DNA of 5,278 nt, taken from Bacteroidales bacterium. Lineage in GTDB: Bacteria; Bacteroidota; Bacteroidia; Bacteroidales; UBA932. Location: the NCBI GenBank assembly GCA_017509375.1, contig JAFWPT010000058.1, forward strand, positions 1 through 5,278, given 5' to 3'. Position numbers and translations under genes: made by a program. A model generated the notes under the pieces. The model saw nothing but the letters and a program-made list of their open reading frames with translations, ran no database searches and had not been told where the DNA came from. Of the stretch, positions 2,598-4,525 are shown piece after piece. Position 1 is the stretch's first letter. Every line of letters begins with the position of its first letter.

Positions 2598-2613
2598 TGT
2601 TCCACGTGGAACA
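2598..2613. other. parS-like ParB-binding palindrome, intergenic copy
   Basis: TGTTCCACGTGGAACA is a perfect 16-bp palindrome and fits the widely conserved bacterial parS consensus TGTTnCACGTGnAACA at every fixed position. ParB is known to bind such sites, spread on the neighbouring DNA and, with ParA and SMC, segregate the origin region. The site starts on the base after the ruvA stop codon and lies in the 38-base gap before the mnmG stop. A terminator is a poorer reading: the palindrome has no loop bases and no T-run follows on either strand. I see no other terminator in this gap. The identical second copy at 2930-2945 strengthens the call. parA and parB are not in the window. Confidence 0.85.
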
Positions 2614-2635
2614 CAAAGCACACGTGACGGTTGTC

Positions 2636-4525
2636 TTACCTCCCGAAATAAACCAGCAAAACAGAAATATCAGCAGGGGACACTCCGGAGATACGGGAAG
2701 CCTGGCCTATGGTGCGAGGTGAATAACGCTTGAACTTTTGCCTGCACTCAATAGTGAGCCCGGAGAGTTTGTCGAAATCGAAATTCTCGGGAATTTCAAG
2801 TTCTTCCAGACGCTTCATCTTTTCAACTTGCAGACTCTCCCGCTGAATATAACCCCTGTATTTCAGGAATATTTCCACAGACTCAACAACATCATCACCA
2901 GGAAGATCCCTAAAGCCATATTTGAGCAGTGTTCCACGTGGAACATAATCCAGCAAGTCATTCAGGGTTAATTCAGGCCGCGTGGCTATTTCTGCAAGCT
3001 TCTTAGACTCAGAAAGCACAGCGGACCCGGAAGATAAAAGGTAAGAATTAAGAGAAGACGCACTCATCTTGGTAGTTTCAGTGAGATTCTGAAGGCGCTG
3101 GACTTCATCATACTTTTTCATAGTAAGTTCGTACCGGTGCGTGTCAGCTAAGCCGATCTGATAAGAGCGCTGGGTGAGACGCTGGTCGGCATTATCCTGC
3201 CTCAACAGAATTCTATATTCTGCCCTGGAAGTAAACATCCGGTAAGGCTCATCTACGCCTTTAGTGATCAAGTCGTCAATAAGTACTCCAATGTAAGCTT
3301 CCTCTCGGCCTAAGATGAATGGATCCTTTTGATTGATTGAAAGGTTGGCGTTAATGCCGGCAATCAAGCCCTGAGCAGCTGCTTCTTCATAGCCGGTAGT
3401 GCCATTAACCTGACCAGCAAGGAACAAACTGGGTACAAGCCTGGACTCAAGGGTCTGCTTCAACTGAGTAGGGTCGAAAAAGTCATACTCTACTGCGTAT
3501 GCAGGGCGGAATACTTTTACGTCTTCCAGACCTTTGATAGCTCGGAGAGCATCCATCTGAACCGGGTATGGCAAAGAAGAAGAAAAACCCTGAAGATAAT
3601 ACTCGTTTGTTCCGCATCCTTCTGGTTCAAGGAAAAGCTGATGTGCGTCGTTTTCAGGGAATACTCTCAGCTTATCTTCAATACTTGGACAATAACGTGG
3701 ACCTCTGCCATGAATCACACCGGTAAAAAGAGGGGAATCATCGAAACCGGCTCGAAGGCGATCATGTACTTCGGTATTCGTATGGAGTATGAAACAATCC
3801 ATTTGACGTCCGGATCGCTGCACCGAAGAGGGAATATCAAGGTAAGAAAAACGCTGAGGGTGCTGGTCGCCAAGCTGACGGTCAAGAACTGAAGTATCAA
3901 CTGACGAAATATCAATTCTCGGGGGAGTCCCGGTTTTCATCCTGTCTGCAGTAATACCCCTTTCTACCAATTGACTTGTCAAGCCAAGCGAAGGAAGCTC
4001 ACCGATACGGCCGCCCTCCAAAGACTTTCGCCCGACAAAAAGCTTTCCACCCAGAAAGGTACCGGCAGTTAAAATAACGGCTTGAGACTTGAAAATCAGC
4101 CCTCCACCAGTGCGGACACCACAAATTTTTGAATTCTCAAAGAGAAAAGAAGCGGCAAAATCTTCGTAAATAGTTAAATTTGAGATATTTAGAAGGTGTT
4201 TTCGCCAGTTGAGAGAAAAGCGGATTTTATCGCATTGGGCACGGGGACTCCACATTGCCGGTCCCTTTGACTTGTTCAGCATCCTGAACTGGAGGGTAGA
4301 TTCATCAGTCACTATTCCAGTCATTCCGCCGAGAGCATCGATCTCCCGGACTATCTGCCCTTTTGCGATTCCTCCTATTGCGGGATTGCATGACATCTTG
4401 GCAAAGGACAAAGTATCCATGGTAAGAAGCAGAACCGACGAACCCAGCCTGGCTGCCGCGCAAGCAGCTTCACACCCGGCGTGGCCGCCACCCACAACGA
4501 TTATGTCAAACCTGTTACTTTCCAC
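2636..4525 (-). CDS. mnmG: tRNA uridine-5-carboxymethylaminomethyl modification enzyme MnmG (GidA)
   Basis: MnmG is an FAD-binding enzyme that works with MnmE to place the (carboxymethyl)aminomethyl group on wobble uridine U34 of several tRNAs in the cytoplasm. The 629-residue product equals the E. coli length. It shows the dinucleotide fold GGGHAG (12-17), CNPAIGG (46-52), KTGTPPRID (197-205), GPRYCPSIEDK (275-285) and GQVNGTTGYEEAAAQG (371-386). The two conserved cysteines are C46 and C279. The C-terminal helical part (from about 440), which contacts MnmE and tRNA, is intact. The start is GTG at 4525, overlapping the ybeY stop by 11 bases; it places the nucleotide-binding motif at the usual distance and no ATG fits better. 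No ribosome binding site is evident, so translation is probably coupled to ybeY. A parS-like palindrome lies in codons 528-532. The gene converges with ruvA. Confidence 0.97.
   Translation of the reverse strand: MESNRFDIIVVGGGHAGCEAACAAARLGSSVLLLTMDTLSFAKMSCNPAIGGIAKGQIVREIDALGGMTGIVTDESTLQFRMLNKSKGPAMWSPRAQCDKIRFSLNWRKHLLNISNLTIYEDFAASFLFENSKICGVRTGGGLIFKSQAVILTAGTFLGGKLFVGRKSLEGGRIGELPSLGLTSQLVERGITADRMKTGTPPRIDISSVDTSVLDRQLGDQHPQRFSYLDIPSSVQRSGRQMDCFILHTNTEVHDRLRAGFDDSPLFTGVIHGRGPRYCPSIEDKLRVFPENDAHQLFLEPEGCGTNEYYLQGFSSSLPYPVQMDALRAIKGLEDVKVFRPAYAVEYDFFDPTQLKQTLESRLVPSLFLAGQVNGTTGYEEAAAQGLIAGINANLSINQKDPFILGREEAYIGVLIDDLITKGVDEPYRMFTSRAEYRILLRQDNADQRLTQRSYQIGLADTHRYELTMKKYDEVQRLQNLTETTKMSASSLNSYLLSSGSAVLSESKKLAEIATRPELTLNDLLDYVPRGTLLKYGFRDLPGDDVVESVEIFLKYRGYIQRESLQVEKMKRLEELEIPENFDFDKLSGLTIECRQKFKRYSPRTIGQASRISGVSPADISVLLVYFGR
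2930..2945. other. parS-like ParB-binding palindrome, copy inside mnmG
   Basis: This is an exact second copy of TGTTCCACGTGGAACA, centred 332 bp from the first. The flanks differ from those of the other copy (GAGCAG before and TAATCC after), so it is not part of a longer duplicated segment. It sits in the mnmG coding region, where its bases are read on the minus strand as Val528-Pro529-Arg530-Gly531-Thr532 with codons GTT CCA CGT GGA ACA. Known chromosomal parS sites are often inside genes near the origin. Two perfect 16-mers within 350 bp are very unlikely by chance. Confidence 0.85.

What the first reader, a model, noticed from the sequence alone, without database searches (positions are those of the whole stretch)
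2598..2945. Two perfect, identical parS-like sites 332 bp apart at the ruvA-mnmG junction
TGTTCCACGTGGAACA appears at 2598-2613 and 2930-2945. Both are perfect 16-bp palindromes matching the ParB-site consensus TGTTnCACGTGnAACA, with unrelated flanks. This suggests a centromere cluster and an origin-proximal position in what looks like a Bacteroidota genome. It implies ParB coverage of mnmG and ruvA.
Basis: partly seen in the sequence, partly recalled or inferred. Interest (0 to 1): 0.8.

Follow-up and report, generated by a model that had tools for sequence, protein, structure and literature searches.

The report
Chromosome centromere sites anchored to mnmG
Two identical DNA sites of the kind bound by the protein that pulls apart copied chromosomes sit just past the end of, and inside, a tRNA-modification gene of a Bacteroidales bacterium, and related bacteria mostly keep such sites at this same gene, in one group even inside its coding sequence.

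Summary
In detail: TGTTCCACGTGGAACA occurs exactly at 2598-2613 and 2930-2945. The first lies between convergent ruvA and mnmG; the second lies inside mnmG, codons 528-532 (VPRGT). The window's own genome is not held. In 80 related mnmG loci the inner site is kept (at most 2 mismatches) in 79, with near-fixed codons beside a hypervariable linker. In relatives' whole genomes exact sites are few and mostly at mnmG: 170 of 193 in 147 phylum genomes and 58 of 62 in an order sample lie within 2 kb of it. ParB was found in 148 of 148 phylum genomes and 6 of 7 close kin. GC skew puts the origin at mnmG, not dnaA, clearly in one genome, roughly in a second, without beating shuffles in two. So these are very probably chromosomal parS sites in the origin region. 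gidA (mnmG) as an origin-region gene is known (PMC2099444, passages); what I did not find described is parS anchored at mnmG across most of a phylum, unlinked from parB, and a clade-specific parS embedded in the coding sequence. ParB binding is not shown.

The parts
2598..2613 (.). parS site A, perfect 16-bp palindrome in the 38-bp gap between the ruvA stop and the mnmG stop (convergent genes)
   Evidence: exact match; a site of at most 1 mismatch within 2 kb 3' of mnmG in 43 of 80 related loci, 4 of which have less than 2 kb of 3' sequence; in the order sample 52 of 62 exact sites are downstream of mnmG within 2 kb, median 15.5 bp
2930..2945 (.). parS site B, identical palindrome embedded in mnmG, codons 527 (last base) to 532, encoding VPRGT
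   Evidence: exact match; aligned site with at most 2 mismatches in 79 of 80 related loci; strong synonymous constraint
2636..4525 (-). mnmG (gidA), tRNA uridine-5-carboxymethylaminomethyl(34) synthesis enzyme; host gene of site B
   Evidence: TIGR00136, 777.7 bits against cut-off 524.85
2004..2597 (+). ruvA, Holliday junction branch migration protein, convergent with mnmG
   Evidence: TIGR00084, 174.1 bits against cut-off 85
4055..4195 (-). second stretch of mnmG (codons about 111-157) with strong synonymous-site constraint in the same clade; function unknown, membership in the centromere region only guessed

Best explanation
The two palindromes are chromosomal parS sites, the centromere of a ParA-ParB-parS system, marking the replication-origin region of a Bacteroidales chromosome. 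ParB dimers would nucleate on both sites, load as CTP clamps, spread over mnmG and ruvA, and serve ParA-driven origin segregation and SMC loading (mechanism inferred from known ParABS systems). In most Bacteroidota genomes sampled the parS cluster sits at mnmG, usually just outside the gene ends, whereas parB is elsewhere and dnaA often is. In the window's clade an additional parS is built into the mnmG coding sequence, where selection on the DNA fixes the codons and, with them, the peptide VPRGT in an inter-helix loop. Shown by computation: the sites, their conservation, their location at mnmG, ParB genes in relatives. Partly shown: origin position, by GC skew in relatives. Inferred: ParB binding, spreading, segregation function, and that DNA rather than protein is the selected object.
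For: Exact matches. 148 phylum genomes (G001 included): 110 hold exact sites, 193 in all, against about 0.013 expected per 3.5 Mb at equal base frequencies; the reversed control pattern occurs in 2 of 148. 170 of 193 exact sites are within 2 kb of the MnmG match, median 25.5 bp for those outside it; 96 of 110 genomes have all their exact sites there; 132 of 147 have a site of at most 1 mismatch there. Order sample (69, G001 included): 58 of 62 sites, 47 of 48 site-bearing genomes. Codons among sequences with the same residue: GTT 80/80, CCA 76/80, CGT 71/76, GGA 77/78, ACA 59/79; codons 528-532 have the highest synonymous excess of any 5-codon stretch scored in mnmG; GTTCCACGTGGAAC is the most widely shared 14-mer of the loci, 71 of 80. 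VPRGT occurs in MnmG of 0 of 122 other phylum loci and 1 of 29 order loci. ParB 148/148 and 6/7 close kin, with a ParA-like gene directly upstream in the two loci read (named from its sequence, not searched), and R173 and G201 of the parS type in 6 of 6. GC-skew fits put the origin 0.01 Mb from mnmG in G013, where dnaA is 1.02 Mb away.
Against: The window's own genome could not be searched, so copy number, parB and origin are inferred from relatives. Close kin G002, G003 and G008 have no exact site anywhere, only sites of 1-2 mismatches at mnmG; G004 has sites but no ParB hit, perhaps an incomplete MAG. Of 110 site-bearing phylum genomes, 14 have exact sites away from mnmG and 9 of these have no exact site near it; 15 of 147 have no site of at most 1 mismatch near mnmG. 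Two residues that contact parS in Caulobacter ParB, S172 and R204, are lysine in the kin ParBs. GC-skew fits for G141 and G131 do not beat the best of 40 shuffles; the raw-skew fit for G102 puts the origin 0.70 Mb from mnmG, farther than parB (0.59 Mb), against 0.16 Mb with third codon positions; skew on the one large Bacteroidales contig read was too noisy to use. No binding data.
Confidence: 0.91

Rival explanations
1. The palindromes are operators (CACGTG-centred) of a transcription factor that regulates mnmG or ruvA, not centromere sites.
For: They sit at one conserved gene, often in its 5' or 3' flank.
Against: The full 16-bp parS consensus is kept, not only CACGTG; exact sites are few and mostly at one locus per genome; of 170 near sites 81 are downstream, 85 upstream and 4 overlap the gene, and in the order sample 52 of 58 are downstream, odd for an operator; all 148 phylum genomes have ParB.
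Confidence: 0.05
2. Site B is kept because the peptide VPRGT matters for MnmG; the DNA palindrome is a by-product.
For: VPRGT is kept in 72 of 81 sequences and the model places it in a confident loop between helices.
Against: Codon choice is nearly fixed, which protein selection does not explain. VPRGT is in MnmG of 0 of 122 other phylum loci and 1 of 29 order loci, and is not in the two solved MnmGs shown aligned (3cp8, 3cp2; Chlorobium and E. coli by recall). Where the site decays by one or two bases, radical residues appear (VPCGT, VPHGT, VPRRT, VPRET), and L036 lost the peptide altogether while keeping an exact site 4 bp past the gene.
Confidence: 0.06
3. The sites are bound by a Noc-like ParB paralogue for nucleoid occlusion.
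For: Noc and ParB are related, and ParB of close kin matches Noc structures too.
Against: The sequence is parS, not the Noc site; ParB of kin has R173 and G201 where Noc has Q and R, although it has the lysine at 184 that is permissive in Noc in four of the six and arginine in one; 134 of 148 phylum genomes have a single ParB-family hit.
Confidence: 0.02

Closest known systems
Chromosomal ParABS centromere (parS consensus TGTTNCACGTGNAACA)
   Same: consensus, palindrome, few clustered copies, ParB encoded in relatives, origin-side location
   Different: cluster tied to mnmG; parB within 5% of genome length in 0 of 23 genomes measured, dnaA in 12 of 23; one copy is coding and fixes codons and peptide in one clade
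gidA (mnmG) as an origin-region gene (PMC2099444; passages)
   Same: that paper lists gidA among ten genes often near bacterial replication origins, with parA, parB, dnaA and others, from an ancestral cluster
   Different: it concerns gene position and skew; the passages seen say nothing of parS at or inside gidA in Bacteroidota, and here parB, and often dnaA, have left the cluster
parS clusters of gut Bacteroidota in the OMM12 Hi-C study (PMC10197239; passages)
   Same: parS clusters mark the origin with GC skew; dnaA not always at the origin
   Different: the passages seen do not name mnmG, an intragenic site, or conservation across the phylum

Membership tests
chromosomal parS | 16-bp palindrome matching TGTTNCACGTGNAACA | tested here: met
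   two exact copies
chromosomal parS | few copies, clustered at one locus rather than scattered | tested here: met
   in relatives only: (14 of 110 phylum genomes have exact sites elsewhere); own genome not held
chromosomal parS | cognate ParA and ParB encoded | tested here: met
   in relatives only: ParB 148/148 and 6/7; ParA-like gene next to parB in the two loci read, named by its sequence and not searched
chromosomal parS | ParB of the parS-specific type (R173 and G201, Caulobacter numbering, PMC7383237) | tested here: met
   6 of 6 ParB loci of close kin; S172 and R204 are changed to K
chromosomal parS | origin-proximal | tested here: inconclusive
   four relatives only: with both skew measures all four fits lie nearer mnmG than dnaA, but G141 and G131 do not beat shuffles and raw skew of G102 is 0.70 Mb off
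chromosomal parS | bound by ParB in vivo or in vitro | not testable with these tools
   needs ChIP-seq or a binding assay

The most novel reading that the evidence does not exclude
mnmG is a dual-purpose locus in this Bacteroidales clade: a tRNA-modification gene that also carries the chromosome's centromere core. The embedded parS dictates five amino acids of the enzyme, and a second, nearly single-copy DNA element hidden in codons 111-157 is a further part of the same origin or segregation machinery (an initiation, unwinding or SMC-loading element), so that replication origin and centromere are overprinted on one coding sequence.
Probability: 0.25. Interest if true: 0.85.

Novelty: new variant of a known kind. 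Interest (0 to 1): 0.6.

Why it matters
If right, the origin region of many Bacteroidota, including uncultured gut and rumen species, could be located from one gene, even in fragmented MAGs and where dnaA misleads; this matters for replication-rate estimates from metagenomes. It also offers a case of a centromere element imposing codons and residues on an enzyme, and asks why this phylum keeps its centromere at mnmG while parB, and often dnaA, sit elsewhere.

Tried and rejected
Own-genome search: not held. GC skew on the 400 kb read of G001 contig 30: too noisy. DnaA-box clusters near mnmG: at most 2 boxes in 300 bp in the 62 of 80 loci with at least 13 kb held. RNA explanation for the second constrained stretch: no Rfam match in the window up to E 1, folding no better than shuffles (z -0.85 and -1.18), 2 consensus pairs without compensatory change in 23 sequences. 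Overlapping gene for that stretch: no other frame is open through the 165 bases in more than 5 of 81 sequences.

Literature, open-licence PMC only: full-text searches for parS with ParB and mnmG found 2 papers and with ParB, Bacteroidetes and gidA 2 papers; further searches are. From the listings and from passages of eight papers I saw no description of parS at or inside mnmG in Bacteroidota; most listed papers were not opened. The parS survey of Livny et al. 2007 is not held and may already note some of this.

Full report
What is there. TGTTCCACGTGGAACA occurs exactly at 2598-2613 and 2930-2945 and nowhere else in the window at up to 3 mismatches. Gene order: a SufS-type cysteine desulfurase cut by the window (1-831, minus; best family TIGR01979 at 383.7 bits, below its cut-off 475.1 for the whole protein), a dipeptide-epimerase-like gene (828-1967, minus; best family below its cut-off), ruvA (2004-2597, plus), mnmG (2636-4525, minus), ybeY (minus, stop at 4515; TIGR00043 above cut-off) and an unassigned open frame from 5056 (plus). 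Site A lies in the 38-bp gap between the convergent ruvA and mnmG. Site B is inside mnmG, reading GTT CCA CGT GGA ACA, VPRGT, codons 528-532.

Relatives. The window's genome is not held. The position aligned with site B has 0 mismatches in 38, 1 in 30, 2 in 12 and 11 in 1 of 81 sequences, window included. The peptide is VPRGT in 72 of 81; the others are VPCGT 2, VPRRT 2, VPHGT 2, VPRGI 1, VPRET 1 and one unrelated (L036). Residues 533-545 match the window in only 0.02 to 0.20 of sequences, while 528-532 match in 0.94 to 0.99. Among sequences with the same residue the codons are nearly fixed: GTT 80/80, CCA 76/80, CGT 71/76, GGA 77/78, ACA 59/79. In a 5-codon scan of mnmG, codons 528-532 rank first in synonymous excess (0.61; gene mean 0.07); by single codons, codon 117 of the second stretch ranks above them. 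The AlphaFold2 model (mean pLDDT 85.8) has 528-531 as a loop between helices 521-527 and 532-535; surface exposure was not computed.

L036 is a natural experiment: its linker carries a different insert, VPRGT is gone, and an exact parS lies 4 bp after the gene end. Decayed sites in other sequences differ by one or two bases and bring radical residues. Both point to the DNA as the selected object; that is an inference.

Whole genomes. Eight close relatives: 5 of 8 have exact sites, 1 or 2 each, all within about 1.1 kb of mnmG; 3 have none. Phylum sample of 148 (G001 included): 110 genomes with 193 exact sites; reversed pattern in 2 of 148. MnmG in 147 of 148. Using stretches around mnmG for 123 genomes (30 with about 1.5 kb and 93 with about 2 kb flanks, a few cut by contig ends) and listed coordinates for 24, 170 of 193 exact sites lie within 2 kb of the MnmG match (85 upstream, 81 downstream, 4 overlapping), median 25.5 bp for those outside; 96 of 110 genomes have all of theirs there; 132 of 147 have a site of at most 1 mismatch there (the 24 were judged on exact sites only). 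The 14 genomes with exact sites elsewhere are G011, G016, G021, G032, G037, G041, G057, G065, G071, G079, G103, G116, G130, G138; 9 of them have no exact site near mnmG. Order sample of 69 (G001 included): 48 genomes with 62 exact sites, 58 within 2 kb of mnmG in 47 genomes, 52 of them downstream with median 15.5 bp. VPRGT is in MnmG of 0 of 122 phylum loci and 1 of 29 order loci (L268, with a site of 2 mismatches), G001 left out. So the flanking position looks ancestral and the coding copy derived; the tool tells no taxonomy of G genomes, so the clade is defined by MnmG similarity only.

In the 80 close loci a second site of at most 1 mismatch lies within 2 kb 3' of mnmG in 43, several of them 2 to 12 bp past the gene as in the window's arrangement.

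ParB and origin. TIGR00180 is found above its cut-off in 148 of 148 phylum genomes and 6 of 7 close kin, with a ParA-like gene directly upstream in the two loci read. All six kin keep R173 and G201 by alignment to Caulobacter ParB; PMC7383237 (passages) says R173 bonds with parS guanine 1, that both residues are conserved in all ParB, and that Noc has Q and R there. S172 and R204, contacts shared by ParB and Noc in that paper, are K in the kin. I chose 26 genomes for a dnaA search; in the 23 with mnmG, dnaA and parB on one contig (G001, G115 and G145 dropped), parB is within 5% of genome length of mnmG in 0 and dnaA in 12; for 10 of the 23 the contig length was taken as the rounded genome size. 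PMC10197239 (passages) reports parS clusters marking origins in gut bacteria including Bacteroides caecimuris, and that dnaA need not be at the origin, in line with this. PMC2099444 (passages) lists gidA among known origin genes, so the neighbourhood itself is not new.

Mechanism. From established ParABS knowledge (PMC7333895, passages; clamp loading with CTP recalled): ParB nucleates at parS, spreads, is moved by ParA and loads SMC. Two sites 332 bp apart would give one complex over mnmG and ruvA. None of this was tested here.

Second element. Codons about 111-157 of mnmG (window 4055-4195) also show strong synonymous constraint in the same 81 sequences, with TTTGAGAATTCAAA in 39 of 80 loci and 0 of 122 other phylum loci, whose mnmG shows no comparable constraint, and 0 of 29 order loci. 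With 1 mismatch allowed, TTTGAGAATTCAAAAAT is found in 7 of 8 close genomes, once each at mnmG, with one further 1-mismatch match in G001. There is no RNA-structure support and no overlapping frame. Its function is unknown; a link to origin function is a guess from its place.

Noticed in passing
window 4055-4195 (minus strand, mnmG codons about 111-157): A second stretch of mnmG with strongly conserved synonymous sites in 81 Bacteroidales-type sequences (consensus includes TTAGATATTTACG and TTTCTCTTTGAGAATTCAAAAATC), without such constraint in 122 other Bacteroidota mnmG; no RNA structure, no overlapping ORF; function unknown.
   Followed up: partly
L011 +1993, L036 +1665, L042 and L049 +1656, L039 and L045 +1565, L053 +1562 (bases past the mnmG end): A recurrent parS-like site of 0-2 mismatches (TGTTCCCCGTGGAAC-type, TGTTCTACGTGGAACA, or exact in L053) about 1.6-2.0 kb past mnmG, in or near the sufS-like gene; may be a third site.
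   Followed up: no
L036, mnmG linker: An in-frame insert reading CHSGRLSCHSERSEG has replaced VPRGT; it looks like a repeat-derived insertion (recalled resemblance, not tested).
   Followed up: no
L001 -2266, L050 -2265, L067 -2262 (bases before the mnmG start): The three mnmG loci closest to the window share a TTTTCCACGTGGAACA site about 2.26 kb 5' of mnmG, while their inner site has 1-2 mismatches.
   Followed up: no
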